From: Blautia massiliensis (ex Durand et al. 2017)
Lineage (GTDB): Bacteria; Bacillota; Clostridia; Lachnospirales; Lachnospiraceae
Reading direction: 5' to 3'
Assembly (NCBI RefSeq): GCF_001487165.1
Contig: NZ_LN913006.1
Location: 809,596 to 873,595, forward strand
DNA: 64,000 nucleotides
In this document: positions 2 through 15,234 of the stretch, piece after piece
Numbering within the stretch: position 1 is the first letter of the stretch
Layout: each line of letters begins with the position of its first letter
The notes under the pieces: generated by a model
Told to the model about the DNA's origin: nothing
The model's input: only the letters and a program-made list of their open reading frames with translations
The model's database searches: none
Position numbers and translations under genes: made by a program

Positions 2-823
2 GGAATGGTAACCGGAACATCCTGGGTCATGGTTCCGGAAACCGTAAAATTTAACCTGACAGGGAAGCTTCCTGAGGGCGTTTACGCAAGAGATCTGATC
101 CTTACCATTATCGGCGAGATCGGGGCAAACGGCTGCAACTATCAGGCAATGGAGTTTGCCGGTGAGGGCGCCAGAACATTAAGCATCAGCGACCGTATGG
201 CACTTTGCAACATGGCTGTTGAGGCCGGTGCGAAGACAGGGATCTTTGAGGCTGATGATAAAGCTCTGGAATATCTGAAAGAGCATGGACGTGAGCCAAA
301 AGCGGTATATCACAGCGATCCGGATGCTGTTTACGCAAGAGAGTATACCTTTGATCTTTCAAAAGTTCGTCCGGTTGTAGCGAAGCCAGACTTTGTTGAC
401 AATGTGGTTCCGGCTGAGGAAACCTGCGGCATCAAGATCAACGAAGCGTTCCTTGGCTCCTGCAATAACGGCCGTATTGAAGACCTCCGTGTAGGCGCAG
501 AGGTGATCAAAGGCAAAAAAGTTGCAGAGGGAGTTCGTTTCCTGGTTGTTCCTGCAAGCCAGACCATCTATCGTCAGGCATTAAAGGAGGGGCTTATCGA
601 TATCTTCATGGAAGCAGGGGCTATTGTTATGAACCCGAACTGCAGTGTATGCTGGGGAAGCTGCCAGGGTGTTATCGGCGAGAATGAGGTCCTGATCAGC
701 ACAGGAACCCGTAATTTCAAGGGACGTGCAGGTCATCCGAGCTCCAAGGTTTACCTGGGATCTGCGGCAACAGTTACTGCATCTGCCGTTGCAGGTGAGA
801 TCGCAATTGCTGACAGAGTATAA
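2..823 (+). CDS. Aconitase/3-isopropylmalate dehydratase large subunit family, C-terminal part (copy 1)
   Basis: The reading frame is already open at the window edge, so the N-terminus (about 150 residues) is missing. The visible part aligns by eye along its whole length with the complete copy at 1473-2717. It keeps three likely [4Fe-4S] cysteines: one in GSCNNGR and two in NPNCSVCWGSC. The family dehydrates and rehydrates 2- or 3-hydroxy tricarboxylates or isopropylmalate. Two residues differ from textbook LeuC: GSCNNGR replaces SCTNGR, and the CSVCWGSC loop resembles the homoaconitase/dimethylmalate dehydratase branch. A 135-bp gap separates it from the small-subunit gene, and no leuA or leuB is nearby. 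Substrate is unknown; leucine biosynthesis is only one option. Confidence 0.85.
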   Translation, partial: GMVTGTSWVMVPETVKFNLTGKLPEGVYARDLILTIIGEIGANGCNYQAMEFAGEGARTLSISDRMALCNMAVEAGAKTGIFEADDKALEYLKEHGREPKAVYHSDPDAVYAREYTFDLSKVRPVVAKPDFVDNVVPAEETCGIKINEAFLGSCNNGRIEDLRVGAEVIKGKKVAEGVRFLVVPASQTIYRQALKEGLIDIFMEAGAIVMNPNCSVCWGSCQGVIGENEVLISTGTRNFKGRAGHPSSKVYLGSAATVTASAVAGEIAIADRV

Positions 824-958
824 GAGTTTCAGAAAAGATTTAAATAATATATTCAGAAATTATCAGAGGATGATCCGTTTCGGCGTGGGTTCTTATAACA
901 GGGCAGACAGAAAACATTTGCCTGATGATACGGAACGGAATAAACAGGAGATATACAT

Positions 959-1450
959 ATGGAAGCATTTACAGGAAAAGTATGGGTACTTGGTGATGAT
1001 ATCGATACGGATATCATTATCCCGACAGAGTACCTTGCACTGAAAACCATTGACGATATGAAACAGTACGGATTCAGTCCCCTTCGTCCGGAGCTGGCCG
1101 GACAGATCCAAAAGGGCGACATTATTGTAGCAGGAAAGAACTTCGGATGCGGATCCTCCAGAGAGCAGGCACCGGAGATCATCAAGGCACTGGGTGTGCA
1201 GTGTGTCATTGCGAAATCTTTTGCCCGGATCTTTTTCCGCAACTCCATTAACAACGGCCTTCTTCTTATTGAGCAGCCGGATCTTCATGACAATGTAAAA
1301 GAGGGAGATCAGGTTACGGTAGTAATGAATGAGCATGTAGAGCACAATGGAAAACAGTACCCGATCGCTTCTCTTCCAGAGAATCTGATGGATATCATCC
1401 AGGCTGGCGGACTGGTAAAAGCCATGCGTAAGCTGAACGGCCTGGACTAA
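959..1450 (+). CDS. leuD: 3-isopropylmalate dehydratase small subunit family (LeuD-like)
   Basis: A 163-residue swivel-domain protein that pairs with an aconitase-type large subunit to form the active site. It has the family landmarks DDIDTDIIIPTEYL near residue 15 and FGCGSSREQAP near residue 60. The start is preceded by AGGAGA about 6 nt upstream. It lies between two large-subunit genes, 22 bp before the second. In archaeal relatives, the residues right after IIP-x-x-YL help separate isopropylmalate from homoaconitate enzymes (roughly YLVY versus YLRT). Here the loop reads YLAL, matching neither. The family is certain; the substrate is not. Confidence 0.88.
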   Translation: MEAFTGKVWVLGDDIDTDIIIPTEYLALKTIDDMKQYGFSPLRPELAGQIQKGDIIVAGKNFGCGSSREQAPEIIKALGVQCVIAKSFARIFFRNSINNGLLLIEQPDLHDNVKEGDQVTVVMNEHVEHNGKQYPIASLPENLMDIIQAGGLVKAMRKLNGLD

Positions 1451-1472
1451 AAAAACGGAGAGGAGAGAAATA

Positions 1473-2717
1473 ATGGGCGAGACGATCATTGAAAAAATTA
1501 TCAGACATAATACAGGCAAGGCAGTAAAGCCTGGTGATATCGTGACGGTCAATGTGGACAGAGTGATGATCCATGATATCTTTATTCCGTTTGTAGCGGA
1601 AAAATTTGAGGAGATGGGCTTTCAGAAGCTGTGGGATCCGGACAAGGTTGTTCTGATCTATGACCATCTTGTACCGGCAAGTCAGCAGGATGATACCAGA
1701 CATTTCCATGTGGGAGATGCTTTTGCAGCTAAATATGGCATGAAAAACGTACACAGAAGTGACGGTATCTGTCATCAGCTTATGACTGAGGCAGGTTATG
1801 TTAAACCCGGTAATATTGTATTTGGCACAGACAGCCATACCACGACTTATGGATGTGTCGGTGCGTTTTCTTCCGGCATCGGTTACACAGAGATGGCCAG
1901 CATCCTGGGAACAGGAACCATGTGGATCAAGGTTCCGGAAACCATAAAGGTTGTGATCGACGGAGAACTTCCGGAGAATGTCATGTCCAAGGATATCATC
2001 CTCCGCCTGATCGGTGACCTTCGTGCAGATGGAGCTACTTACCGTGCTTTGGAATTTTCCGGAAGCACCATTGAAAATATGTCTGTGGCAAGCCGTATGA
2101 CTATGGCGAATATGGCAATTGAGGCCGGTGCGAAATGTGCACTTTTCACACCGGATGAGAAGACAGCTGCTTACTGCAACGTAGAGCTTGATGATTATCA
2201 GAAGAGTCTTGTGGGAGATGAGGATGCTGTCTACATGAAGACCATAACTTATAAAGCAGAGGATTTTGTGCCGGTAATGGCATGTCCGTCTCAGGTGGAC
2301 AAGATCCGTGATGTCAGTGAGCTTCAGGGTGAGACCATCGACCAGGTATTCATCGGTTCCTGTACCAACGGACGTCTGGAGGATCTTATGGCGGCAGCAG
2401 AGGTGCTGAAGGGCAAAAAGGTTGCAGACTTTGTAAAGCTGATCGTGACTCCTGCCAGCCGCAAAATTTACTGTCAGGCTATTGAGCTTGGCATTCTGGA
2501 TACTCTTGCGGAAGCAGGGGCTATCATTACACATCCGGGCTGCGGACTTTGCTGCGGAAGGACCGGCGGAATCCTGACAGACGGTGAAAAGGTCGTGGCA
2601 ACCAACAATCGTAATTTCCTGGGACGTATGGGAACTTCCAAGGTTCAGATCTATCTGGCATCTCCGAAAACAGCAGCAGCCTGTGCCGTTGCAGGCAAGA
2701 TCGTAATGCCGGAATAA
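1473..2717 (+). CDS. leuC: Aconitase/3-isopropylmalate dehydratase large subunit family (copy 2)
   Basis: A full-length 414-residue catalytic subunit, close to the size of the archaeal/clostridial LeuC-HacA type. Visible motifs are GTDSHTTTYG near residue 112, GSCTNGR near residue 292 and HPGCGLCCGR near residue 354; the cysteines of the last two ligate the catalytic [4Fe-4S] cluster. GGAGAGGAG sits just upstream of the ATG. It is related to, but clearly diverged from, the copy at 2-823, so this is an old paralogue pair rather than a recent duplication. An intrinsic terminator follows. It may partner with the small subunit at 959-1450; whether both large subunits share that partner cannot be seen. 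Confidence 0.88.
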   Translation: MGETIIEKIIRHNTGKAVKPGDIVTVNVDRVMIHDIFIPFVAEKFEEMGFQKLWDPDKVVLIYDHLVPASQQDDTRHFHVGDAFAAKYGMKNVHRSDGICHQLMTEAGYVKPGNIVFGTDSHTTTYGCVGAFSSGIGYTEMASILGTGTMWIKVPETIKVVIDGELPENVMSKDIILRLIGDLRADGATYRALEFSGSTIENMSVASRMTMANMAIEAGAKCALFTPDEKTAAYCNVELDDYQKSLVGDEDAVYMKTITYKAEDFVPVMACPSQVDKIRDVSELQGETIDQVFIGSCTNGRLEDLMAAAEVLKGKKVADFVKLIVTPASRKIYCQAIELGILDTLAEAGAIITHPGCGLCCGRTGGILTDGEKVVATNNRNFLGRMGTSKVQIYLASPKTAAACAVAGKIVMPE

Positions 2718-4738: not shown

Positions 4739-4747
4739 ATGAAAGGT

Positions 4748-5542
4748 ATGAAGTACAGTTATTATCCGGGTTGCACCCTGAGAACAAAGGCCAAAGATCT
4801 GGATGAGTATGCCAGAGCCAGTGCCACAGCCCTTGGGTTTGAGCTTGAGGAGATCGAGGACTGGCAGTGTTGTGGTGGTGTTTATCCGCTTGGCACAGAC
4901 GAGATCGCCACAAAGCTTTCTTCCGTCCGTGCGTTAAACCAGGCAAAAGAAAAAGGCCAGGATCTGGTGACAATCTGTTCAGCCTGTCATCATGTGATCA
5001 AGCGTGTCAATGATGATATGAAAAATGTGGAAGATATCCGGATCAGAGCCAACAATTATATGCAGTTGGAAGCTCCCTATGAAGGAGAGACAACCGTTCT
5101 CCATTATCTGGAGGTTCTCCGGGACAGAGTCGGTTTTGATAAACTGAAAGAAAAAGTAGTAAATCCTTTTACCGGAAAGAAGATCGGAGCCTATTACGGA
5201 TGTCTGCTTCTGAGACCTGGAAAGATCATGGCATTTGATGATCCGGAAAATCCAAGGATCATGGAGGATTTTATCCGTGCCCTTGGCGCTGAGCCTGTGA
5301 TCTATCCTTACAGAAATGAATGCTGTGGAGGATATATATCCCTGAAAGAAAAAGAAATGTCACAGAATATGTGTGAAAAGATTGAAGAAAGCGCAGCAGG
5401 CTTTGGCGCAGATATGCTGATCACTGCCTGTCCGCTCTGCAAATACAATCTGAATAAAAATTCCGGAAATAAAATGCCGGTTTACTATTTTACAGAGCTT
5501 CTGGCAGAAGCCCTTGGCGTCAAAGAGGAGGTGGCAAAATGA
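4748..5542 (+). CDS. hdrB: Heterodisulfide reductase subunit B-like protein
   Basis: A protein of about 264 residues with two complete CCG domains. Domain 1 has Cys9, Cys41-Cys42, Cys77 and Cys80; domain 2 has Cys152, Cys192-Cys193, Cys228 and Cys231. In HdrB of methanogens these bind two non-cubane [4Fe-4S] clusters that cleave a disulfide. All ligands are present, so the catalytic site appears intact. An ATG at 4739 would add three residues; I prefer 4748 because the AAAGGA site is too close to 4739 and homologues begin MKYxYYPG. Its stop overlaps hdrC by 4 bp (ATGA). The organism should lack coenzymes M and B, so the natural disulfide or other acceptor is unknown. Confidence 0.88.
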   Translation: MKYSYYPGCTLRTKAKDLDEYARASATALGFELEEIEDWQCCGGVYPLGTDEIATKLSSVRALNQAKEKGQDLVTICSACHHVIKRVNDDMKNVEDIRIRANNYMQLEAPYEGETTVLHYLEVLRDRVGFDKLKEKVVNPFTGKKIGAYYGCLLLRPGKIMAFDDPENPRIMEDFIRALGAEPVIYPYRNECCGGYISLKEKEMSQNMCEKIEESAAGFGADMLITACPLCKYNLNKNSGNKMPVYYFTELLAEALGVKEEVAK

Positions 5543-5928
5543 GAGATAACCATTCTGCTGCGGAAAAAATAAAGGAGATCAGCGGGACCAATCCTCTGAA
5601 ATGTATGAAGTGTGGCAAATGCTCTGCTACCTGCCCATCCTTTGACGAGATGGATATCAAGCCTCATCAGTTTGTGTCCTACGTGATCAATGAAAATATC
5701 GAAGCACTTGTAAATTCAGCATCTCTGTGGAAATGTCTTTCCTGTTTTGCCTGTGTGGAGCGCTGTCCGCGAGACGTAAAACCCGGAAAGATCATTGACG
5801 GGGCAAGACAGCTGGTTGTTCGGGAAAAAGGCGGAGACTATCTTTCACCAAATGAAATTCCGGAGCTTCTTGATCCGGAGCTTCCTCAGCAGCTGCTTGT
5901 AAGTGCGTTCAGAAGATACAGGAGGTGA
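5539..5928 (+). CDS. hdrC: Heterodisulfide reductase subunit C-like ferredoxin
   Basis: A 129-residue soluble protein with two [4Fe-4S] motifs: Cys22, 25, 28 and 32, then Cys66, 69, 72 and 76. In Hdr complexes this subunit passes electrons from HdrA to the CCG-domain subunit HdrB. It is translationally coupled to hdrB by a 4-bp overlap. No membrane segment is present, so the complex is cytosolic, unlike HdrE-linked forms. Confidence 0.88.
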   Translation: MRDNHSAAEKIKEISGTNPLKCMKCGKCSATCPSFDEMDIKPHQFVSYVINENIEALVNSASLWKCLSCFACVERCPRDVKPGKIIDGARQLVVREKGGDYLSPNEIPELLDPELPQQLLVSAFRRYRR

Positions 5929-5932
5929 GAAA

Positions 5933-7921
5933 GTGCAGAGAATCGGTGTATTTGTCTGTCATTGCGGAAGTAATATTGCCGCTACGGTAGACGTGAAAAA
6001 AGTTGTGGAGATCATTGCAAAAGAGCCAGGAGTTGTCCATGCAGAAGATTATCAGTATATGTGTTCTGAAGCAGGACAGTCCAGGATCCAGGAAGCCATC
6101 CGTGAAAAAAATCTCACAGGAGTGGTTGTCTGTTCCTGTTCTCCGCGTATGCATGAGGCAACTTTCCGTAAAGCAGCGGAAAAGGCCGGCCTGAATCCAT
6201 ATATGGTGGAGATCGCAAATATCCGTGAGCACTGTTCCTGGATCCACAAGGATATGCAGGAGGCTACGGAGAAGGCCGTGATCCTTGCAAGAGCAGCAGT
6301 AGCAAAAGTCAATTTAAATGCTCCTCTTCAGCCGGGAGAAAGCCAGGTTACAAAGAGAGCCCTGATCATCGGAGGCGGTATCGCCGGAATCCAGACGGCT
6401 CTTGATATTGCCGATGCAGGCTATGAAGTTGATATTGTGGAAAAAACACCAAGTATCGGCGGAAGAATGTCACAGCTTGACAAAACCTTCCCTACTCTGG
6501 ATTGCTCCGCATGTATCCTTACTCCAAAAATGGTGGAGGCTGCAGCTCACGAAAAGATCAATATCTATACATACAGTGAAGTAGAAAAAGTTGCAGGTTT
6601 TGTAGGAGATTTTACTGTTGATATCCGCAAAAAAGCGCGAAGTGTCAACATGGACAAATGTACAGGCTGTGGAGTCTGCCAGGAAAAATGTCCTTCCAAA
6701 AAGATTCCAAATGAGTTCAACAGAGGGCTGAACAACCGGTCAGCTATTTATACTCCGTTTGCACAGGCGATTCCAAATGTTCCTGTGATCGACAGAGAGC
6801 ATTGCCTGAAATTTAAGACAGGCAAATGTGGTGTCTGCTCCAAAGTATGTCAGGCAGGAGCCATTGATTACGACCAGCAGGATGAGATCGTAACACAGAA
6901 ATACGGAGCAATCGTGGTGGCAACCGGATTTGATACCATCAAGCTTGACAAATATGATGAATATGCATACAGCCAGAGCAAGGATGTGATCACATCTCTG
7001 GAGCTGGAGCGTATCATGAATGCTGCAGGACCTACAAAAGGACATCTTGAGCGCCTCTCCGATGGAAAAGCACCGAAGGAGATCGTATTTATCCAGTGTG
7101 TTGGAAGCCGTTGCTCCGATGACCGTGGAAAGCCATACTGTTCCAAGATCTGCTGTATGTACACAGCTAAGCATGCCATGCTGATCCGTGATAAATATCC
7201 GGATACCAATGTGACGGTATTTTATATTGATGTCCGTACACCTGGTAAAAACTTCGATGAGTTTTACAGAAGAGCAGTTGAGCAGTATAACGTAAACTAC
7301 ATCAAAGGTCAGGTAGGAAAAGTAATCCCGCAGCCGGATGGAACACTTCTTGTTCAGGGCTCGGACCTTCTTGATAATAAGCAGATCTTCAAGAAAGCAG
7401 ATATGGTAGTTCTTGCAACAGCCATTGAACCGAATCCGGATGTACGTAAGATTGCTACCATGCTTACTGCAAGTATTGACACCAACAATTTCCTTACAGA
7501 AGCCCATGCAAAGCTTCGTCCTGTAGAATCACCGACAGCAGGAATTTTCCTTTCCGGTGTATGCCAGGGGCCAAAGGATATCCCGGAGACAGTTGCCCAG
7601 GCAGGAGCTGCGGCTGTTAAGGCCATAGGACTTCTTGCAAAGGACAAGTTGACAACCAATCCATGTACGGCAAAATCCGACGAGCTTCTCTGTAACGGAT
7701 GCTCTACCTGTGCAAATGTATGTCCTTACGGAGCGATTTCCTATGAGGAGAAACAGGTCAACGATCACGGTATCCGTGAGACAAGAAGAGTTGCGGTTGT
7801 CAATACAGCACTTTGCCAGGGCTGCGGTGCCTGCACAGTAGCCTGCCCGTCAGGAGCCATGGACCTTCAGGGCTTCTCCAACAGACAGATTATCGCGGAG
7901 GTGGATGCAATATGTCGATAG
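5933..7921 (+). CDS. hdrA: Heterodisulfide reductase subunit A-like flavoprotein
   Basis: A 662-residue FAD protein from a GTG start at 5933. GGAGG lies 7 nt upstream; the frame opens earlier at 5903 inside hdrC. In order: an N-terminal domain with CHCG at residues 9-12, the FAD Rossmann motif GGGIAG near 147-152, an inserted ferredoxin region (CTGCGVCQEKCP and CGVCSKVC), and two C-terminal [4Fe-4S] motifs (CNGCSTCANVCPYG and CQGCGACTVACPSG). HdrA carries the bifurcating FAD in characterised Hdr complexes, splitting electron pairs between ferredoxin and HdrB. It overlaps the MvhD-like gene by 10 bp. No selenocysteine codon is involved. Confidence 0.9.
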   Translation: MQRIGVFVCHCGSNIAATVDVKKVVEIIAKEPGVVHAEDYQYMCSEAGQSRIQEAIREKNLTGVVVCSCSPRMHEATFRKAAEKAGLNPYMVEIANIREHCSWIHKDMQEATEKAVILARAAVAKVNLNAPLQPGESQVTKRALIIGGGIAGIQTALDIADAGYEVDIVEKTPSIGGRMSQLDKTFPTLDCSACILTPKMVEAAAHEKINIYTYSEVEKVAGFVGDFTVDIRKKARSVNMDKCTGCGVCQEKCPSKKIPNEFNRGLNNRSAIYTPFAQAIPNVPVIDREHCLKFKTGKCGVCSKVCQAGAIDYDQQDEIVTQKYGAIVVATGFDTIKLDKYDEYAYSQSKDVITSLELERIMNAAGPTKGHLERLSDGKAPKEIVFIQCVGSRCSDDRGKPYCSKICCMYTAKHAMLIRDKYPDTNVTVFYIDVRTPGKNFDEFYRRAVEQYNVNYIKGQVGKVIPQPDGTLLVQGSDLLDNKQIFKKADMVVLATAIEPNPDVRKIATMLTASIDTNNFLTEAHAKLRPVESPTAGIFLSGVCQGPKDIPETVAQAGAAAVKAIGLLAKDKLTTNPCTAKSDELLCNGCSTCANVCPYGAISYEEKQVNDHGIRETRRVAVVNTALCQGCGACTVACPSGAMDLQGFSNRQIIAEVDAICR

Positions 7922-8355
7922 AAACAAAGGAAGAATTCAGACCAAAGATCGTGGCATTCTGCTGTAACTGGTGCAGCTACGCCGGAGCAGACCTTGCCGG
8001 AAGCAGCCGTTTGAGCTATCCGGCGGATGTAAAGATCATCCGTGTTCCATGTTCCTGCCGTGTCAATCCCATGTTCATCCTCCGTGCCTTTGAAAAAGGA
8101 GCCGATGGTGTGATCATGTGCGGATGTCATCCGGGAGACTGCCATTACAGTACCGGAAACTATTATGCAAGAAGACGTATGACACTTCTGTTTTCAATGC
8201 TGGATTATATTGGGGTGGAAAACGGAAGAACACGTGTGGAATGGGTATCTGCCGCAGAAGGCGTGAAATTTTCACAGACTATGAATGAGTTTGTTGAGAA
8301 GATCCATTCACTTGGTAAAAACGTGAGATTGGAGGATATAAGATGCAGGAGCTGA
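7912..8355 (+). CDS. mvhD: MvhD/FlxD-like [2Fe-2S] hydrogenase-type subunit
   Basis: A 147-residue member of the MvhD family (methyl-viologen-reducing hydrogenase delta), which docks an electron donor to HdrA. The Cys pattern is FCCNWCSYAGAD at about 16-27, PCSCRVN near 46-52 and CGCHPGDCHY near 69-78. The start at 7912 is chosen from GGAGG 9 nt upstream and family length; the open frame extends further back, inside hdrA. It overlaps hdrA by 10 bp and the next gene by 13 bp, suggesting fixed stoichiometry. With no hydrogenase nearby, the electron donor is expected to be the Flx-like module that follows. Confidence 0.87.
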   Translation: MSIETKEEFRPKIVAFCCNWCSYAGADLAGSSRLSYPADVKIIRVPCSCRVNPMFILRAFEKGADGVIMCGCHPGDCHYSTGNYYARRRMTLLFSMLDYIGVENGRTRVEWVSAAEGVKFSQTMNEFVEKIHSLGKNVRLEDIRCRS

Positions 8356-9317
8356 TAAAACGTGCAAAAGAACTGCTTGCAGATGGCACGGTAGTCCGGG
8401 TTCTTGGGTGGAAAGCCGGAGATCTTGCCTTTAATCCGGAACCAGCCTATTTTGAAACACCGGAATCTCTGGAGGATTTTGTCTATGATGGATTCTGCGG
8501 TGCCAATTTAAGCAAATATATGATCGAAGCTTCCAAGCTGGAAGGAAAAACCATGGTCTGTCTGAAGCCCTGCGATACATATAGCTTTAACCAGCTTTTG
8601 AAAGAGCATCGTGTAGACAGAGAAAAAGCCTATATCGTAGGTGTTGGCTGTAAAGGAAAGCTGGATATTGAAAAGATCCGCAAAATGGGGATCAAGGGTA
8701 TCCGGGGAATTTCCGGAGCAGAGATTACCGGAGATGCAGAGACATTGACTGTGGATACTGTTTACGGAGAAAAAACCTGTGCATACAAAGATGCCATGCT
8801 GGAACGCTGCCATGTATGTAAAGGAAAAGAGCATAAAATTTACGATGAACTGATCGGTGAGTCAAAGGAGACAAAGGACGCTGACCGTTTCGCAGAAGTT
8901 GAGCGGATCGAGGCAATGAGTCCGGAAGAAAAATTTGCATTCTGGCAGAGCGAGCTGAGTAAATGTATCCGCTGTAATGCCTGCCGTAATGTATGTCCGG
9001 CCTGCAGCTGCCGCAAATGCGTTTTTGACAGCAACAAGTTCGACAGCGCCCAGAAGGCAAATGTGGATTCCTTTGAGGAAAAGATGTTCCATGTGATCCG
9101 TGCCTTCCATGTAGCTGGAAGATGTACGGACTGTGGCGAGTGCAGCAGAGTCTGCCCGCAGGGAATTCCCCTTCATCTGTTTAACCGTAAGTTTATCAAG
9201 GATATTGATGCGTTTTACGGTGAGTATCAGGCAGGCGAGGATGCGGAGTCAAAGGGTCCGCTTACCAGCTTTACCTTTGAGGATGTAGAGCCAGGGATCG
9301 TGGCAGAAAGGGGATAA
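8343..9317 (+). CDS. FrhB/FlxC-like iron-sulfur oxidoreductase subunit
   Basis: A 324-residue protein. The first 170 residues resemble the N-terminal part of coenzyme F420 hydrogenase/dehydrogenase beta (FrhB) proteins, with CLKPCDT near residue 75 and GVGCKGK near 101. The C-terminal half has two ferredoxin-type motifs, CIRCNACRNVCP near 204 and CTDCGECSRVCP near 262, plus an extra Cys-rich CSCRKC stretch. It lies in the position of flxC in Flx-Hdr operons of sulfate reducers. The likely role is an electron wire between the NADH flavoprotein and MvhD. F420 use is unlikely in this lineage. Confidence 0.75.
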   Translation: MQELIKRAKELLADGTVVRVLGWKAGDLAFNPEPAYFETPESLEDFVYDGFCGANLSKYMIEASKLEGKTMVCLKPCDTYSFNQLLKEHRVDREKAYIVGVGCKGKLDIEKIRKMGIKGIRGISGAEITGDAETLTVDTVYGEKTCAYKDAMLERCHVCKGKEHKIYDELIGESKETKDADRFAEVERIEAMSPEEKFAFWQSELSKCIRCNACRNVCPACSCRKCVFDSNKFDSAQKANVDSFEEKMFHVIRAFHVAGRCTDCGECSRVCPQGIPLHLFNRKFIKDIDAFYGEYQAGEDAESKGPLTSFTFEDVEPGIVAERG

Positions 9318-9320
9318 TGT

Positions 9321-10358
9321 ATGTATAAGATCGCAGTAGAAAATCTGCCGGCATTATTCCGGAAAATTGCCGCAGACCAGGAATTATATTTACCGGTAAA
9401 GGTAAGTGAACAGGTGAACTTCAAGGCATGGAGTGAGGATGCAGAAGTTTCCCTTGAAACACTGAAAACCGTGAAATCACCGAAGGATGCTTTCTTTCCG
9501 CAGAGTGAAAATCTCTATACCTGTAAAAAAGACGGAAAAAATATCAGCATTGAGCCTCAGGCACTGAAAGACCAGAATTTTGTCGTATTCGGAATGAGAG
9601 CCTGTGATGTACAGGGTGTGAAGGTTCTCGACAAGGTATTCCTTGGGGATCCGGTGGATACTTTTTACCAGGCAAGAAGAGAACATGGAACTATCGTAGC
9701 TCTTGCCTGTCATGAACCGGAGGAAAGCTGCTTCTGTAAAGTATTTGGCATTGATGCTGCAGATCCGGAAGCAGATGTTGCAGCCTGGATCATCGAGGGA
9801 GAACTTTTCTGGAAGCCTCTCACAGAAAAAGGAAATGCTCTGACAGAAGCTGTGAAGGAGCTTTTGGCAGATGCTGATGAGACAAAGGTAGAAGAGGAGA
9901 AGAAGGCAATCCGTGGTATTATCGAGCTTCTTCCATATACACATCTTTCACTGGAAGGATGGGCGCAGGAAGAATACATGGACCGTTTCAATTCTCCTGT
10001 ATGGGAGAAACTGTACAAGCCTTGTCTTGCCTGCGGAACCTGTACCTTCGTATGTCCGACCTGTCAGTGCTATGACATTAAGGATTACGACACAGGGCAC
10101 GGTGTTCACCGTTACCGCTGCTGGGATTCCTGCATGTACTCTGATTTTACCATGATGGCTCACGGAAACAACCGTACCAGCCAGATGCAGAGATTCCGTC
10201 AGAGATTTATGCATAAGCTTGTTTATTATCCGTTAAATAATGACGGCATGTTCTCCTGTGTTGGCTGCGGCCGCTGCGTGGAGAAATGTCCGGAATCTTT
10301 AAATATCGTAAAAGTCATCAAGGCCTTTGAAAAACAGGGAGGTGAAAAGAATGAGTGA
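9321..10358 (+). CDS. 4Fe-4S dicluster subunit (FlxB / sulfhydrogenase-beta / AsrA-like)
   Basis: A 345-residue protein with the layout of sulfhydrogenase beta and anaerobic sulfite reductase A. About 230 N-terminal residues contain GMRACDVQGV (near 98) and a conserved CHEPEESCFCKVFG segment. Two [4Fe-4S] motifs follow: CLACGTCTFVCPTC near 234 and CVGCGRCVEKCP near 312. In the Flx module this type of subunit relays electrons from the FAD/NAD subunit. It starts 3 bp after the previous stop and overlaps the next gene by 8 bp. Confidence 0.78.
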   Translation: MYKIAVENLPALFRKIAADQELYLPVKVSEQVNFKAWSEDAEVSLETLKTVKSPKDAFFPQSENLYTCKKDGKNISIEPQALKDQNFVVFGMRACDVQGVKVLDKVFLGDPVDTFYQARREHGTIVALACHEPEESCFCKVFGIDAADPEADVAAWIIEGELFWKPLTEKGNALTEAVKELLADADETKVEEEKKAIRGIIELLPYTHLSLEGWAQEEYMDRFNSPVWEKLYKPCLACGTCTFVCPTCQCYDIKDYDTGHGVHRYRCWDSCMYSDFTMMAHGNNRTSQMQRFRQRFMHKLVYYPLNNDGMFSCVGCGRCVEKCPESLNIVKVIKAFEKQGGEKNE

Positions 10359-11205
10359 ATGTACCTGTCATAAAAATTATACACTGGATACGCTGATCCC
10401 CAAGGTTGGCGTGATCACAGATATCCGTCAGGAGACACCGGATGTAAAAACCTTCCGTGTGGAGGCTCCGGAGGGTGGAAAGCTTTTCGAGCATATGCCA
10501 GGACAGTGTGCCATGGTCTGTGCACCAGGCGTCAGTGAAGGTATGTTTTCCATTACTTCTTCTCCGACTGTAAAGGATTATCAGGAATTCAGTATCAAAA
10601 AATGCGGATCCCTTACCGACTATCTCCATAGCCTTCAGGTTGGAGATGAGATCGCAGTCCGCGGACCATACGGAAATCATTTTCCGGTGGAAGATAAGTT
10701 AAAGGGAAAAAATCTCCTGTTCATCGCAGGTGGAATCGGTCTGGCACCTCTCCGTTCCGTGATCAATTATGTGCTGGATAACCGTGAGGATTACGAAACA
10801 GTAGATATTCTCTATGGTTCCCGTTCCGCAGATGATCTGGTGCAGCTTAAGGAAATCCAGGAAGTATGGATGAAAACAGAAGGTGTAAATGTATATCTTA
10901 CCATTGACCGCGAGCAGGAAGGCTGGGACGGTCATGTAGGATTTGTTCCGAATTATCTGAAGGAGATTGGTTTTGATACCAATAAGACCGCTCTGGTCTG
11001 CGGCCCGCCGATCATGATCAAATTCGTTCTGGCAGGACTGGAAGAGCTGGGCTTCTCCAGAGATCAGGTATATACCACACTGGAGCTTCGTATGAAATGC
11101 GGTGTCGGAAAATGCGGCCGCTGCAACATCGGAGACAAATACGTCTGCAAAGACGGCCCGGTATTCCGATGTGATGAGGTGGATGAATTACCTAATGAGT
11201 ACTAA
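10351..11205 (+). CDS. FAD/NAD(P)H-binding oxidoreductase subunit (FlxA / AsrB / HydG-like)
   Basis: A 284-residue ferredoxin-NADP reductase-fold protein. An FAD domain (about 30-110) is followed by an NAD domain with AGGIGLAPLRS near 127. A C-terminal [2Fe-2S] motif, CGVGKCGRCNIG plus a later Cys, is typical of DHOD electron-transfer/AsrB proteins. It is the probable NADH entry point of the complex. The ATG at 10351 has GGGAGGTG 7 nt upstream. The 269-bp gap to frdB, which holds a large palindrome, is the only long break between hdrB and the fumarase genes. Confidence 0.82.
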   Translation: MSECTCHKNYTLDTLIPKVGVITDIRQETPDVKTFRVEAPEGGKLFEHMPGQCAMVCAPGVSEGMFSITSSPTVKDYQEFSIKKCGSLTDYLHSLQVGDEIAVRGPYGNHFPVEDKLKGKNLLFIAGGIGLAPLRSVINYVLDNREDYETVDILYGSRSADDLVQLKEIQEVWMKTEGVNVYLTIDREQEGWDGHVGFVPNYLKEIGFDTNKTALVCGPPIMIKFVLAGLEELGFSRDQVYTTLELRMKCGVGKCGRCNIGDKYVCKDGPVFRCDEVDELPNEY

Positions 11206-11264
11206 GTTATAGATTGCACCTTAAGAAACTTTCAAATATATGCGCTGGTTATAGCCAGTACACA

Positions 11265-11443
11265 GCCATGTGGAACAGCCATCTCGCTAAGATGCCCATT
11301 TTAGGAGCGGTTTTAGCGGCGCTGAAATCCAGTACTTACGAAGACTTAGGAGTGAAGGCTCTCCTGAACTCCTTAGTCGCAGTTAGTACTTAGTTCAGCA
11401 GAGCGTTGCGACGGGCACGTGTGAGATGGCTGTTCCACATGGC
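11265..11443. repeat. 179-bp imperfect palindromic element inside the operon
   Basis: Outer arms of 23 bases (11265-11287 and 11421-11443) are inverted repeats with a single difference that is still a G-U pair in RNA. Nested inside are GCTGAA/TTCAGC, AGTACT/AGTACT and an 11-base pair of arms (GACTTAGGAGT with ACTCCTTAGTC, one mismatch). In RNA it would fold into one long hairpin. It contains no credible ORF; a frame through its right arm only extends frdB. It looks like a small non-autonomous repeat (MITE/REP-like) or a structured RNA. Copy number elsewhere in the genome cannot be seen here. Confidence 0.7.
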
Positions 11444-11474
11444 GTACGATTTGGATAAAAGAAAGGACACCAAC

Positions 11475-12152
11475 ATGGAAAATAATATGGTAAACGTATA
11501 TTTTTTCGGTAAAAAATACAGCGTTCCCGGTGATCTGACCATTATGACAGCTATGGAATATGCCGGTTATACATTAAAAAGAGGATGCGGCTGCAGACAC
11601 GGATTCTGCGGTGCCTGTGCGACCATCTACAGGATCAAGGGACAGAATGAGCTGAAAACCTGTCTCGCCTGTCAGACACAGGTGCAGGAGGGAATGTATG
11701 TGGCAAGTATCCCGTTCTTCCCTACAGACAAGAGACTTTATAATATAGAAGATCTTAAGCCGAACCAGCAGGTAATGATGGAGCTTTATCCGGAGATCTA
11801 CAGCTGCATCGGATGCAATGCCTGCACAAAGGCCTGTACACAGGACTTAAATGTCATGCAGTATATTGCATATGCTCAGAGAGGCGAGCTTGAAAAATGT
11901 GCAGAGGAATCCTTTGACTGCGTAAGCTGCGGCTGCTGTTCCGTAAGATGTCCGGCAGGAATTTCCCATCCGATGGTAGGCCTTCTGGCAAGACGTCTCA
12001 CCGGAAAATATATTGCGCCGAAAAGCGAGCATCTGGAGAAACGTGTGGAAGAGATCCACGAGGGCAAATTTGACGATATGATCGAGAAGATCATGCAGAA
12101 GCCGATCACAGAGATGCAGGAACTTTACAACAGCAGAGAAATCGAGAAGTAG
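11475..12152 (+). CDS. frdB: Fumarate reductase/succinate dehydrogenase iron-sulfur subunit
   Basis: A 225-residue protein. The N-terminal plant-type [2Fe-2S] domain has cysteines at 38/40, 45, 48 and 63/66. The C-terminal region has Cys111, 114, 117 and 121, then Cys149, 152, 155 and 159. The second motif has an extra cysteine at the position that is non-cysteine in [3Fe-4S] FrdB proteins, so a [4Fe-4S] cluster is predicted. ATG 11475 follows AAAGGA 7 nt upstream, just outside the palindrome. There are no quinone-binding membrane subunits, so this should be a soluble enzyme fed by protein electron carriers, plausibly the Hdr-Flx proteins. Confidence 0.88.
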   Translation: MENNMVNVYFFGKKYSVPGDLTIMTAMEYAGYTLKRGCGCRHGFCGACATIYRIKGQNELKTCLACQTQVQEGMYVASIPFFPTDKRLYNIEDLKPNQQVMMELYPEIYSCIGCNACTKACTQDLNVMQYIAYAQRGELEKCAEESFDCVSCGCCSVRCPAGISHPMVGLLARRLTGKYIAPKSEHLEKRVEEIHEGKFDDMIEKIMQKPITEMQELYNSREIEK

Positions 12153-12165
12153 GAGGGCGTAAAAC

Positions 12166-13776
12166 ATGTATGCACCATATCCAGAAAATATGATGGAATC
12201 CATCAAAAAGGTAGAGGCTACAAGAGCGGAGCGTATGGCAACAGAGCCAAGACGTCTGAGTGCAGATGAGAAAGATGCTCTTCTCAAAAAATTCCATCCG
12301 GACTATAACCCGGATGCATTTGCAGAGATCAAGGTAGGACCGAACAAGGGACAGAAAGCACCACTGGAACTGACAAAAATGCTCCATTCAGAAAGCCGTC
12401 TGCTCAACGAAAAAATCGATCTTACAAAAATCGATTATGATGTAGATGTACTGATCATCGGCGGTGGCGGAGCAGGCTCTTCCTGTGCCATCGAGGCCCA
12501 CAACGCAGGTGCCAACGTTATGATCGTTACAAAGCTCCGTATCGGTGATGCCAACACCATGATGGCAGAAGGCGGGATCCAGGCAGCAGATAAAGAAAAT
12601 GATTCCCCGGTACAGCATTATCTGGACTGCTTTGGAGGCGGACATTTTGCAGCAAAACCGGAGCTGGTAAAAAGACTGGTAATGGAAGCCCCGGATGCGA
12701 TCAAATGGCTCAACGACCTTGGTGTTGAGTTTGATAAAGCAGAAGACGGAACCATGGTCACTACACATGGCGGCGGTACCTCCAGAAAGAGAATGCATGC
12801 TGCAAAGGATTATTCCGGATCAGAGATCATGCGTACTATCCGTGATGAGGTCTTAAATCTTAAGATCCCGGTAGTGGAATTTACCTCCGCTGTAGAACTT
12901 CTGAAGGATGAAAAAGGTCAGACTGCCGGTGCAGTCCTTCTCAACATGGAAACCGGAGACTATTCCGTTGCAAGAGCAAAAACAGTTGTAATTGCAACCG
13001 GTGGTGCAGGAAGAATGCATTATCAGGGATTCCCGACCTCCAATCACTACGGAGCAACTGCTGACGGACTCGTACTTGGATACAGAGCAGGCGCTTCCCT
13101 TCTTTACCAGGATTCTATCCAGTATCATCCAACAGGTGCGATCTATCCGTCACAGATCCTTGGTGCCCTGGTAACAGAGAAGGTTCGTTCCGTTGGTGCA
13201 CAGCTTGTAAATGCAAACGGAGAAGCTTATATTCATCCGCTGGAAACCCGTGACGTAAATGCTTCCGGTGTTATCCGCGAGTGTGAGGAAGGCCGTGGCG
13301 TTGAAGTTCCAGGTGGACGAAAAGGTGTATGGCTGGATACTCCGATGATCGAGATCCTGGGCGGTGAGGGAACTATCGAAAAGAGGATCCCTGCCATGTT
13401 CCGTATGTATATGAACTACGGCATTGATATGAGAAAAGTCCCGATCGTGATCTACCCGACCCTTCATTATCAGAACGGTGGTCTTGAGATCAACGGAGAC
13501 GGCTTTACAAAAGAAATCCCGAACCTTCTGGTTGCAGGAGAGGCAGCAGGCGGAATCCACGGAAGAAACCGACTGATGGGCAACTCTCTTCTTGATGTAA
13601 TTGTATTCGGACGAAATGCAGGTAAAAAAGCAGCTGCCAAATGCAAAGAGGTAGAGCTTGGCACCATGAATCTAGATCATATCAGAAAATATGAAGAGGA
13701 ACTGAAAAATGCAGGAGTTGATACAGGAGACGTATCTCCTATGCTTCTGCCGAAATATGCCCGCCACGAACGTTAA
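12166..13776 (+). CDS. frdA: Soluble fumarate reductase/succinate dehydrogenase flavoprotein subunit
   Basis: A 536-residue flavoprotein. About 90 N-terminal residues precede the Rossmann motif GGGGAGSS near 99, an extension not seen in standard FrdA. Substrate-site motifs are HGGGTSRKRMHA near 205, HPTG near 327 and GEAAGGIHGRNRLMG. The residue corresponding to the His that covalently holds FAD in respiratory FrdA/SdhA is Asn130 (ANTMMAEGG), so FAD should be non-covalent. The C-terminal helical cap is short. It follows frdB by 13 bp. Reduction of fumarate to succinate is expected, given the fumarase genes downstream. Confidence 0.88.
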   Translation: MYAPYPENMMESIKKVEATRAERMATEPRRLSADEKDALLKKFHPDYNPDAFAEIKVGPNKGQKAPLELTKMLHSESRLLNEKIDLTKIDYDVDVLIIGGGGAGSSCAIEAHNAGANVMIVTKLRIGDANTMMAEGGIQAADKENDSPVQHYLDCFGGGHFAAKPELVKRLVMEAPDAIKWLNDLGVEFDKAEDGTMVTTHGGGTSRKRMHAAKDYSGSEIMRTIRDEVLNLKIPVVEFTSAVELLKDEKGQTAGAVLLNMETGDYSVARAKTVVIATGGAGRMHYQGFPTSNHYGATADGLVLGYRAGASLLYQDSIQYHPTGAIYPSQILGALVTEKVRSVGAQLVNANGEAYIHPLETRDVNASGVIRECEEGRGVEVPGGRKGVWLDTPMIEILGGEGTIEKRIPAMFRMYMNYGIDMRKVPIVIYPTLHYQNGGLEINGDGFTKEIPNLLVAGEAAGGIHGRNRLMGNSLLDVIVFGRNAGKKAAAKCKEVELGTMNLDHIRKYEEELKNAGVDTGDVSPMLLPKYARHER

Positions 13777-13826
13777 CAATATGTTATGATAATAAAAACA
13801 TATGAGATAAGCGAAAGGAGTCTATT

Positions 13827-14669
13827 ATGAGAGAAATCGAAGTAACCAGACTTACAGAGGTTATCGAAAAACTCTGTATCGAAGCCAATGAACATCTCCC
13901 GGAAGATGTGAAGGATGCTATCAAAACCTGCCGTGCCTGCGAGGACGGTGAGATCGCAAAAGGTGTCCTTGATAACATTATCGAGAATTTTGATATCGCA
14001 GACAGTGAGAATGTTCCGATCTGTCAGGATACCGGAATGGCATGCGTATTCCTTGAAATTGGTCAGGATGTCCACTTTACAGGCGGAGATTTAAATGATG
14101 CCATCAATGAAGGTGTACGCCGCGGATACGATAAAGGTTACCTGAGAAAATCCGTTGTCAAGGATCCGGTACGCCGTGGAAACACAGGTGATAATACACC
14201 GGCTATGATCTATACAGAGATCGTTCCTGGAGATCAGGTGAAAGTAACTGTAGGACCAAAAGGCTTCGGAAGCGAGAATATGAGCCAGATCCGTATGTTC
14301 AAGCCATCTGCAGGCCTTCAGGGAATCAAGGATTTCATTCTTGAGGCTGTAGAAACTGCAGGTCCGAACCCATGTCCGCCTATGGTAGTTGGTGTTGGTA
14401 TCGGAGGAACTTTTGACAAATGTGCACTTCTTGCAAAGAAAGCGCTGATGCGTCCTCTGAATACAGAGAACCCGGATCCTTACTATGCAGATCTTGAGAA
14501 AGAGATGCTGGAGAAGATCAACAAGCTTGGTATCGGACCTCAGGGCTTTGGCGGAAAGACCACAGCTATCGGTCTGAACATTGAGACTATGCCTACTCAT
14601 ATCGCAGGTATGCCATGTGCAGTTAACATCAACTGCCATGTAACACGTCATAAAACGGAGGTGCTTTAA
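13827..14669 (+). CDS. Class I fumarate hydratase, alpha subunit
   Basis: A 280-residue catalytic half of a two-subunit iron-sulfur fumarase (or tartrate dehydratase family). The signature CQDTGMA (Cys66) gives one ligand of the [4Fe-4S] cluster; other conserved cysteines lie in GGTFDKC and near the C-terminus. AAAGGAG precedes the ATG, 50 bp after frdA. The beta subunit follows after one base. With frdAB it gives malate-fumarate-succinate conversion. L-tartrate dehydratase is the main alternative for this family; the fumarate reductase context favours fumarase. Confidence 0.88.
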
Positions 14670-14670
14670 T

Positions 14671-15234
14671 ATGGAAAGAAGAAAGATCACACTGCCTCTG
14701 ACAAGAGAGCTGGCAAGAACTCTCCATGCAGGCGACCAGGTTTTACTGACAGGAACTATCTATACATCCCGTGATGCAGGTCACAAGAGAATGTGCGAGG
14801 CCCTTGCAAAAGGAGAAAAGATTCCTTTTGACCCTACAGATGCTACCATTTACTATGTAGGTCCGACCCCGGCAAAACCAGGCGAAGTCATCGGCTCCGC
14901 AGGCCCTACAACCAGCGGCCGTATGGATGCCTATGCACCGACTATGATGTCCGTAGGCGCCAGAGGAATGATCGGAAAAGGTGCCCGCCTTCCGGAAGTC
15001 GTAGATGCAATGAAAAAATATGACGGCGTATATTTCGGAGCCATCGGCGGTGCAGGTGCACTTCTTGCAAAATGCATCAAAAAAGCAGAGCTTATCGCTT
15101 ACGAAGACCTGGGCGCAGAAGCACTCCGCAAGCTTTATGTGGAAGACATGCCGCTTGTAGTCATCATTGACAGCGAGGGAAATAACCTCTACGAAGAGGG
15201 GCGTGCAGAGTACCTGAAAGACCACGCAGAATAA
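14671..15234 (+). CDS. Class I fumarate hydratase, beta subunit
   Basis: A 187-residue swivel-domain partner of the alpha subunit. Typical motifs are VGPTPAKPGEVIGSAGPTTS (about 65-84), RMDAYAP and GGAGALLAKC near 129. Its ATG is one base after the alpha stop, with ACGGAGG upstream inside the alpha gene, so the two are coupled. It is the last gene of the operon; a strong terminator follows at 15281-15362. Confidence 0.88.
   Translation: MERRKITLPLTRELARTLHAGDQVLLTGTIYTSRDAGHKRMCEALAKGEKIPFDPTDATIYYVGPTPAKPGEVIGSAGPTTSGRMDAYAPTMMSVGARGMIGKGARLPEVVDAMKKYDGVYFGAIGGAGALLAKCIKKAELIAYEDLGAEALRKLYVEDMPLVVIIDSEGNNLYEEGRAEYLKDHAE

What the first reader, a model, noticed from the sequence alone, without database searches (positions are those of the whole stretch)
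4748..15234. Hdr-Flx module co-operonic with soluble fumarate reductase and fumarase: possible NADH-driven, ferredoxin-coupled fumarate reduction
Gene order is hdrB-hdrC-hdrA-mvhD-flxC-like-flxB-like-flxA-like-frdB-frdA-fumA-fumB. Most Hdr/Flx genes overlap by 4-13 bp. Known Flx-Hdr complexes bifurcate electrons from NADH to ferredoxin and a disulfide. Here no coenzyme M/B or DsrC gene is present, and the next genes are a quinone-independent fumarate reductase. Fumarate (or a thiol relay like methanogen thiol:fumarate reductase) could be the high-potential acceptor. That would let a fermenter gain reduced ferredoxin from succinate formation.
Basis: partly seen in the sequence, partly recalled or inferred. 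Interest (0 to 1): 0.85.

Follow-up and report, generated by a model that had tools for sequence, protein, structure and literature searches.

The report
Predicted electron-splitting fumarate reductase operon
A gut bacterium carries one gene cluster that probably splits electrons from NADH between fumarate and ferredoxin, so that making succinate also stores energy; the idea has been proposed in print for a related bacterium, but we found no biochemical proof.

Summary
Window 4739-15234 holds hdrB-hdrC-hdrA-flxD-flxC-flxB-flxA-frdB-frdA-fumA-fumB on one strand. The nine-gene order up to frdA is intact in 62 of 62 close relatives with enough flank. I found no biochemical proof. What I add: (1) FrdA keeps the fumarate-site residues but has Asn where covalent-FAD enzymes have His. 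(2) The 28 best HdrB matches among 398 phylum genomes all lie in the 39 FrdA-bearing genomes, seven of them with FrdBA at a separate place. (3) In matched Hdr-Flx clusters HdrB (perhaps HdrC) diverges where FrdA is absent; HdrA and FlxA-D hardly do. (4) Some genomes have only hdrCB beside frdBA. Best reading: NADH-fed bifurcation at HdrA, with HdrBC passing high-potential electrons to FrdBA. Main weakness: 11 of 38 other FrdA genomes show no HdrB of this type.

The parts
4739..5542 (+). hdrB: two CCG domains, both non-cubane cluster motifs complete; of the HdrB type found with FrdA (start may be 4748)
   Evidence: PF02754, two stretches; C12/C44C45/C80/C83 and C155/C195C196/C231/C234 conserved; tree
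5539..5928 (+). hdrC: ferredoxin-type subunit with two [4Fe-4S] motifs
   Evidence: TIGR03290/NF041779 matches below cut-off; 8 Cys conserved
5933..7921 (+). hdrA: FAD and Fe-S subunit, presumed bifurcation site (alternative start 5903)
   Evidence: phmmer E 1e-208 to HdrA 5odc_A over residues 3-660; K413, aligned to chain residue 409, present in 100 of 100 rows
7912..8355 (+). flxD / mvhD: presumed link between Flx and HdrA
   Evidence: PF02662 E 6e-55
8343..9317 (+). flxC-like Fe-S relay, related to FdhB of HdrABC-Fdh complexes
   Evidence: 9t1s_M, 7bkb_E, 8rvu_E matches, E 1.3e-21 to 1.6e-20, best stretch in the C-terminal Fe-S part
9321..10358 (+). flxB-like Fe-S subunit (ShyB/AsrA-like)
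   Evidence: PF17179; NF040829 197.7 bits, below its cut-off of 690
10351..11205 (+). flxA-like FAD/NAD(P)-binding subunit with [2Fe-2S] domain, presumed NADH entry
   Evidence: PF00175, PF00970, PF10418; C250, C255, C258, C266 conserved
11206..11474 (+). 269-nt intergenic region with very strong hairpin; single copy in genome; no T-run terminator listed
11475..12152 (+). frdB: [2Fe-2S] plus two four-Cys [4Fe-4S] motifs, no fused CCG domain
   Evidence: C40/45/48/66, C111/114/117/121, C149/152/155/159 each in at least 121 of 122 rows; domains
12166..13776 (+). frdA: compact fumarate reductase flavoprotein with about 90-aa N-terminal extension, no Pfam match for the usual C-terminal domain
   Evidence: PF00890; TfrA best NCBIfam at 332.8 bits, below its 718 cut-off; active-site residues
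13827..14669 (+). fumA: class I fumarase alpha part
   Evidence: PF05681 E 6e-121
14671..15234 (+). fumB: class I fumarase beta part
   Evidence: NF005310 291.8 bits over cut-off 238

Best explanation
The operon encodes a soluble, quinone-free electron-bifurcating fumarate reductase. Fumarase makes fumarate from malate. FlxABC takes hydride from NADH and FlxD passes electrons to the FAD of HdrA. HdrA sends one electron of each pair to ferredoxin and the other through HdrC and the two non-cubane clusters of HdrB to FrdB and the FAD of FrdA, where fumarate becomes succinate. Overall: 2 NADH + fumarate + oxidised ferredoxin (2 e-) -> 2 NAD+ + succinate + reduced ferredoxin. Rnf or a hydrogenase then uses the ferredoxin. 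Shown here: the gene set, its conservation, intact active and cluster sites, HdrB divergence that goes with FrdA, no DsrC match, presence of RnfC. Inferred: NADH as donor, bifurcation, ferredoxin reduction, the direct HdrB-to-FrdB contact, and co-transcription. The weight below is for the coupled, ferredoxin-reducing reading; the direct contact alone I put at about 0.5.
For: Nine-gene order in 62 of 62 loci with at least 7.3 kb upstream; of 18 shorter loci 16 agree as far as they reach and 2 say nothing. In a phylum sample of 398 genomes, 39 (own included) hold FrdA at E<=1e-100; the 28 best HdrB matches (222 bits or more; next 208) all lie in those 39 (hypergeometric p 2e-34, treating genomes as independent). 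In seven of these genomes no hdr gene was found beside frdA in the stretch fetched, but an hdrBCA-flxDCBA cluster lies elsewhere, six complete and one cut after flxB. Mean identity of window-type clusters to other Frd-genome against no-FrdA-genome Hdr-Flx clusters: HdrB 48.2 v 37.5, HdrA 58.3 v 57.0, FlxD 58.4 v 55.3, FlxC 36.7 v 38.5, FlxB 39.0 v 37.2, FlxA 56.3 v 55.1; path-length ratio HdrB 1.54, others 0.87-1.14. Four loci have only hdrC-hdrB beside frdBA in the stretch fetched, and G315 (L198) is consistent at a contig end. Methanogen TfrB matches FrdB and HdrB in different parts of one chain (19-184 and 396-487). Fumarate-site residues in 126-128 of 128 FrdA rows. 23 of 67 related operons carry an extra gene between frdA and fumA; the one tested is of the AspT family, to which succinate exporter SucE1 belongs (PMC9527358, passages). 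Two RnfC over cut-off, no DsrC, no MenD over cut-off. Energetically allowed: -18 to -53 kJ/mol over the potentials tried.
Against: No biochemistry here or in the papers found. Eleven of 38 other FrdA genomes show no Frd-type HdrB: five of them have other HdrBs (G073, G079, G115, G120, G421), five have none at E<=1e-40, and one (G293) has its frd contig cut; so FrdBA can work with other partners. The HdrB tree split is partly built in, because the comparison rows were chosen among the lower-scoring HdrBs; the HdrB identity ranges of the two groups overlap (38.2-57.5 v 34.0-41.8). HdrA also separates the two groups in the matched tree (support 99), though without extra distance. HdrB keeps both complete non-cubane motifs, which also suits disulfide reduction. 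The operon is patchy: 8 of 40 relatives sampled, 6 of 24 in the genus, have FrdA at 68% identity or more (many of these assemblies are incomplete). The 269-bp hairpin gap leaves co-transcription unproven. PMC8578096 (passages) reports that a purified Moorella HdrABC-MvhD-MetFV complex did not reduce ferredoxin. PMC12773636 (passages) assumes a plain NADH-dependent fumarate reductase in Blautia luti; 'hdr' and 'heterodisulfide' do not occur in its main text.
Confidence: 0.65

Rival explanations
1. Thiol relay: Hdr-Flx bifurcates from NADH to ferredoxin and a small disulfide, and FrdBA reduces fumarate with the resulting dithiol, as methanogen thiol:fumarate reductase does with CoM/CoB.
For: HdrB keeps both complete CCG motifs; the best named family of FrdA is TfrA.
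Against: FrdB has no CCG domain of its own, unlike TfrB; no DsrC in the genome; HdrB, and not HdrA or Flx, diverges with FrdA, which fits a docking partner; hdrCB alone beside frdBA in some genomes. Other small disulfides, and CoM/CoB genes, were not searched.
Confidence: 0.15
2. Non-bifurcating NADH:fumarate reductase: the Hdr-Flx genes carry electrons from NADH to FrdBA without ferredoxin, or ferredoxin is only an alternative donor.
For: PMC12773636 assumes an NADH-dependent fumarate reductase in Blautia luti (passages); the Moorella HdrABC-MvhD-MetFV complex did not reduce ferredoxin (PMC8578096, passages).
Against: HdrA aligns nearly end to end with HdrA of the methanogen complex 5odc, with the lysine at chain position 409; the energy drop is large enough to be worth coupling. 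None of this proves bifurcation.
Confidence: 0.15
3. Two separate enzymes share an operon because both belong to succinate-forming fermentation, without sharing electrons: Hdr-Flx serves an unknown disulfide and FrdBA takes electrons from ferredoxin or a flavodoxin.
For: Eleven of 38 other FrdA genomes show no Frd-type HdrB, so FrdBA does not always need it.
Against: Co-occurrence when unlinked and divergence of HdrB but not HdrA/Flx with FrdA are hard to explain without contact or a shared carrier.
Confidence: 0.05

Closest known systems
'Succinate operon' of Pseudoclostridium thermosuccinogenes (PMC7282089, passages; 2019 preprint cited there, not read)
   Same: Fumarase, a Flx-Hdr block whose locus tags allow seven genes, a two-gene fumarate reductase, and the proposal that succinate formation is coupled to ferredoxin reduction
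   Different: By locus tag the fumarase lies at the other end; a proposed transporter ends that operon and the window lacks one; no sequence of that operon was compared here
FlxABCD-HdrABC of Desulfovibrio vulgaris (Ramos et al. 2015; title seen in reference lists)
   Same: Same subunit set for NADH input, HdrA flavin, HdrBC
   Different: No DsrC in this genome; HdrB of the type found with FrdA; fumarate reductase in the same gene cluster
Methanogen thiol:fumarate reductase TfrAB
   Same: TfrA is the best named relative of FrdA; TfrB joins FrdB-like and HdrB-like parts in one chain
   Different: Scores below the curated cut-offs; the FrdB- and HdrB-like parts are separate proteins here; no evidence for CoM/CoB
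8-Methylmenaquinol:fumarate reductase (SdhABE)
   Same: An HdrB-like SdhE works with an SdhA/SdhB-type pair (recalled)
   Different: Scores well below cut-offs (SdhE 145 v 500, SdhA 214 v 1100); no MenD over cut-off
HdrABC complexes of methanogens with hydrogenase or formate dehydrogenase (5odc, 7bkb, 8rvu, 9sfi)
   Same: HdrA (E 1e-208), HdrB relatives, FlxC related to FdhB
   Different: Input is presumed NADH, acceptor presumed fumarate

Membership tests
FlxABCD-HdrABC | HdrA, HdrB with two CCG domains, HdrC, FlxD/MvhD, FlxC, FlxB and a NAD/FAD-binding FlxA in one cluster | tested here: met
   no sequence of the Desulfovibrio proteins was compared
FlxABCD-HdrABC | DsrC-type disulfide partner in the genome (recalled as typical of sulfate reducers) | tested here: not met
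   no PF04358 match in the genome
FlxABCD-HdrABC | NADH oxidation coupled to ferredoxin reduction | not testable with these tools
   needs purified complex
Thiol:fumarate reductase TfrAB | TfrA and TfrB models at or above curated cut-offs | tested here: not met
   FrdA 332.8 v 718; FrdB 33.1 v 385
Thiol:fumarate reductase TfrAB | CCG (HdrB-like) domain fused to the iron-sulfur subunit | tested here: not met
   FrdB 225 aa, no PF02754
Thiol:fumarate reductase TfrAB | CoM-SH and CoB-SH as donors | not testable with these tools
   CoM/CoB synthesis genes were not searched either
8-Methylmenaquinol:fumarate reductase | SdhA and SdhE models at or above cut-offs | tested here: not met
   214.3 v 1100 and 145.3 v 500
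Fumarate reductase / SdhA flavoprotein superfamily | dicarboxylate-site residues H, T-E, R, H, R (E. coli FrdA positions recalled) | tested here: met
   H321, T337, E338, R362, H434, R469 in 126-128 of 128 rows, some rows being copies of one locus
Fumarate reductase / SdhA flavoprotein superfamily | histidine for covalent FAD | tested here: not met
   Asn130 in 127 of 128 rows, Gln in one
P. thermosuccinogenes-type 'succinate operon' | fumarase + Flx-Hdr block + two fumarate reductase genes in one cluster | tested here: met
   gene content against the paper's passages; no sequence comparison made
P. thermosuccinogenes-type 'succinate operon' | proposed succinate transporter gene in the operon | tested here: not met
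   none in the window operon and no PF06826 in the genome; a spacer ORF in 23 of 67 related operons, one of them tested by Pfam

The most novel reading that the evidence does not exclude
HdrBC plus FrdBA is a reusable 'fumarate end' in Bacillota: a specialised HdrB wires its two non-cubane clusters straight into a fumarate reductase instead of a disulfide, and different input modules (Flx with NADH; HdrA plus a 1076-residue double HdrA-like protein without FlxA/B; HdrBC alone) plug into it. It would be a non-thiol terminal acceptor for an HdrB.
Probability: 0.45. Interest if true: 0.78.

Novelty: new member of a known kind. Interest (0 to 1): 0.6.

Why it matters
Succinate is a common product of gut fermentation. 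If each succinate also yields reduced ferredoxin, energy budgets drawn for such bacteria need changing: the 2026 Blautia luti model (passages) counts 3.05-3.15 ATP per glucose with a plain NADH-dependent fumarate reductase and calls its own result on which hydrogenase spends the ferredoxin unexpected. A purified Hdr-Flx-Frd complex would also show an HdrB that feeds something other than a disulfide, of which I found no report in the searches named in the full report. The HdrB type gives a sequence marker to tell fumarate-coupled Hdr-Flx clusters from others.

Tried and rejected
Rex operator search: four 3-mismatch hits in the window, none near the operon, no more than chance. Idea that the flxA-frdB hairpin is a multi-copy repeat: single copy in the genome. 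Idea that the structured RNA found in that gap in relatives belongs to this operon: rejected, it is dispersed in 1-4 copies in 9 of 11 genomes searched. FrdA as aspartate oxidase: NadB models score lower than TfrA, and the genome has another, weaker relative (437-aa frame) at C4:2286439-2287683, which I take to be NadB (inference). Idea that HdrA would track FrdA like HdrB: the first HdrA tree rejected one clade (p-AU 0.0055) but held a mis-picked fragment (L160) and a long row (L205); in the matched set HdrA separates (support 99) with no extra distance.

Limits of the counts: the 80 genome-contig loci are the closest of at least 571 relatives (75-100% FrdA identity), so 62 of 62 describes close kin only. 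Loci L034-L041 were mapped (eight of eight agree, L039 truncated) but not counted, and some are the same regions as L042, L043 and L100. The comparison HdrBs were taken from below the score gap, so that tree's split is partly by construction; three of its 11 'no_frd' rows come from FrdA genomes (other HdrBs of G291, G315, G073), and two rows labelled unlinked (L198, L199) are contig ends. The seven no-FrdA Hdr-Flx clusters are those with all seven genes among 11 fetched, chosen among the better HdrB matches outside the Frd set. Four of the 12 distant Frd-genome clusters (L170, L174, L175, L178) were fetched only as far as flxD or the start of flxC. In one search only one no-FrdA HdrC passed the length filter. 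The p-value treats genomes as independent. L063 was dropped from alignment A4 because its frdA frame holds stops. Of the 23 spacer genes only L083's was run against Pfam; the other 22 were judged from their first 70 residues.
Full report
What is there. The window lies in a 3.72-Mb genome held in four contigs. The nearest named record by FrdA is Blautia luti MSK.16.34 (100% identity, whose note says records very near the window's genome may be left out), so I take the host to be a Blautia species close to B. luti; the window's genome itself is unnamed. Eleven genes run in one direction from 4739 to 15234. Pfam and NCBIfam give HdrB, HdrC, HdrA, MvhD/FlxD, three Flx-like subunits, an iron-sulfur and a flavoprotein subunit of the fumarate reductase superfamily, and a two-part class I fumarase. 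The one thing missed is a 269-bp gap between flxA and frdB with a strong hairpin.

Is the cluster conserved? A scan of genome contigs with a FrdA alignment gave at least 571 relatives, of which the best 80 were kept. Of these, 62 had at least 7.3 kb upstream, and all 62 keep hdrB-hdrC-hdrA-flxD-flxC-flxB-flxA-frdB-frdA. Of the 18 shorter ones, 16 agree as far as they reach and two have no upstream gene. Of 67 with at least 3.2 kb downstream, fumarase follows directly in 35, after a spacer gene in 23, and was not found in 9. The spacer gene in L083 belongs to the AspT family (PF06826 257 bits; TIGR01625 over cut-off); the other 22 look alike by eye. PMC9527358 (passages) places the succinate exporter SucE1 in that family, which fits succinate as the product. 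The window's own genome has no PF06826 match. The operon is patchy: among 40 relatives sampled, 8 (6 of 24 in the genus) have FrdA at 68% identity or more, and all 8 carry the cluster as far as their contigs reach.

Wider sample. Among 398 genomes spread over the phylum, 39 (own included) hold FrdA at E<=1e-100, in 40 places. I fetched all 39 places other than the window's own and mapped the window's genes on them, opening all ORFs in 15 of them. By genome, the 38 others divide as follows. Eleven have hdrC/hdrB/hdrA, further HdrA-like stretches, flxD and a distant flxC before frdBA, some cut by contig ends (in L152 the HdrA-like stretch is one 1076-residue ORF). One has the full hdrCBA-flxDCBA-frdBA. 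Four have frdBA followed by hdrBCA-flxD, where the stretch ends. Five have only hdrC-hdrB by frdBA (one, G315, pieced from two contig ends, L167 and L198). Seven have no hdr beside frdA in the stretch fetched but a separate hdrBCA-flx cluster elsewhere. Ten have none of these. In the ten, FrdBA sits by other genes. In G079 and G421, and at one of the two FrdA places of G131, these look by eye like membrane electron carriers; Pfam was run only on three proteins of L182 (G131), one of which is an FMN-binding Fe-S protein. In G335 and G419 the neighbour is a 1144-residue protein that I take, from recall, to be pyruvate carboxylase.

HdrB goes with FrdA. In the same 398 genomes, 148 have an HdrB match at E<=1e-40. 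The 28 best, at 222 bits or more and one per genome, all lie in the 39 FrdA genomes; the next match has 208 bits. The eleven FrdA genomes without such an HdrB are the ten above and G293, whose frd contig is cut; five of them (G073, G079, G115, G120, G421) have other HdrBs. A tree of 50 HdrBs puts 39 from Frd genomes on one side of a branch against 11 others, SH-aLRT 100, but the 11 were picked from below the score gap, so this split is partly built in. The matched control is more telling. I compared 12 window-type clusters with 12 distant Hdr clusters of Frd genomes and 7 Hdr-Flx clusters of genomes without FrdA (fewer rows for some subunits). Mean HdrB identity falls from 48.2 to 37.5% (ranges 38.2-57.5 and 34.0-41.8), while HdrA (58.3, 57.0), FlxD (58.4, 55.3), FlxC (36.7, 38.5), FlxB (39.0, 37.2) and FlxA (56.3, 55.1) change little. 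HdrC falls too (38.5, 28.8) but with one comparison row. Tree path ratios agree: HdrB 1.54, the others 0.87-1.14. So the electron-input side is generic and the acceptor side differs where FrdBA exists. With the hdrCB-frdBA loci this points to HdrBC as FrdBA's partner. Methanogen TfrB, which matches FrdB over 19-184 and HdrB over 396-487, looks like a natural fusion of the two; HdrC's weak match (121-219, 23 bits) overlaps FrdB's and may be generic ferredoxin.

Sites. FrdA keeps H321, T337, E338, R362, H434 and R469 in 126-128 of 128 rows, matching the E. coli FrdA substrate residues (positions recalled), but has Asn130 in place of the covalent-FAD histidine in 127 of 128. From recall, E. coli FrdA with that histidine changed still reduces fumarate but poorly oxidises succinate, so this enzyme is probably a one-way fumarate reductase. 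It has a conserved N-terminal extension of about 90 residues and no match to the usual C-terminal domain. FrdB has a [2Fe-2S] set and two full four-cysteine [4Fe-4S] sets; quinone-linked FrdB has a three-cysteine [3Fe-4S] set (recalled). HdrB keeps both CCG motifs. HdrA aligns over 658 residues with methanogen HdrA 5odc_A (E 1e-208), and a lysine aligned with chain residue 409, which I recall lies by the bifurcating flavin, is present in 100 of 100 rows. FlxC resembles FdhB of HdrABC-formate dehydrogenase complexes. No PDB entry in the listings holds both a FrdA-like and an HdrB-like chain.

Mechanism. I think NADH enters at FlxA and bifurcation happens at HdrA; ferredoxin takes the low-potential electrons, and HdrC-HdrB-FrdB-FrdA take the rest to fumarate. 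The sum is -33 to -53 kJ/mol with NADH at -320 mV and -18 to -37 with NADH at -280 mV, for ferredoxin at -400 to -500 mV. RnfC is present twice over cut-off, so ferredoxin could feed an ion gradient. DsrC is absent and MenD is not found over cut-off; the futalosine route was not tested. Bifurcation itself is inferred.

What is known. PMC7282089 (2020; passages read) describes a 'succinate operon' in Pseudoclostridium thermosuccinogenes: fumarase, a Flx-Hdr block whose locus tags allow seven genes, a two-gene fumarate reductase and a possible transporter, up about four-fold at low CO2 (not significant for every subunit, by its own words), and treats fumarate reduction as linked to ferredoxin reduction. 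[quoted passage not shown] A 2014 paper known to me only by its title in a reference list already puts Hdr-Flox and reduction of endogenous fumarate together in Desulfovibrio alaskensis. Searches for a biochemical demonstration or for HdrBC as partner of fumarate reductase showed none in their listings: 30 of 62 listed; 25 of 138; 20 of 181; 1 of 1; 13 of 13; 6 of 6; 25 of 78. That is no proof of absence, because the lists were capped and most subscription journals are not held. PMC12773636 (2026; passages) measured fumarate reductase with methyl viologen and found frdAB highly transcribed by semi-quantitative PCR in Blautia luti, assumed an NADH-dependent enzyme, and has neither 'hdr' nor 'heterodisulfide' in its main text. 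That makes B. luti a ready test organism.

Verdict. This is a real, conserved and probably coupled system, a new member of a published but unproven kind. The fresh part is the HdrB divergence that goes with FrdA, which makes the proposal testable. FrdBA is modular, since 11 of 38 other FrdA genomes sampled show no such HdrB.

Noticed in passing
flxA-frdB gap of L042 (9128-9270), L043, L036, L037, L044, L106, L108, L110, L112; own genome G000:C4:2369328-2369462 (-): An RNA element of about 140 nt with strong covariation (15 of 30 predicted pairs show compensatory change in 7 sequences). It reached no Rfam gathering score in 6 loci searched and occurs in 1-4 copies in 9 of 11 genomes searched, with no common neighbour by eye in the 5 places looked at. 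The window's flxA-frdB gap gave no match.
   Followed up: partly
window 11206-11474: 269-nt intergenic region with a 21-bp perfect inverted repeat (11265-11285/11423-11443) and fold z -8.1; partly shared with L043 and L044. It may set the ratio of Frd to Hdr-Flx transcript.
   Followed up: partly
window 5-2717: Tandem aconitase-superfamily genes: the 3' part of a LeuC/HacA-type large subunit, a LeuD/DmdB-type small subunit, then a second full large subunit, upstream of the operon; substrate unclear.
   Followed up: no
L152 5955-9182; similar HdrA-like stretches in L153-L160, L168, L179: A 1076-residue protein with two HdrA-like halves (only L152 was opened) beside hdrCBA, flxD and frdBA, with no FlxA/FlxB match: possibly a different, double-flavin input module for the same HdrBC-FrdBA end.
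   Followed up: partly
L182 6383-9996 (-), L165, L187: FrdBA of this family beside membrane-type genes by eye; in L182 an FMN-binding Fe-S protein and a 536-residue protein without Pfam or NCBIfam match. These FrdBA copies may use another donor.
   Followed up: no
L188, L189, L190 (G115, G073, G120): The most distant FrdA relatives (52-53% identity). L189, the only one opened, and the LeuC-like gene near L190 do not suggest a fumarate pathway, so the substrate may differ.
   Followed up: no
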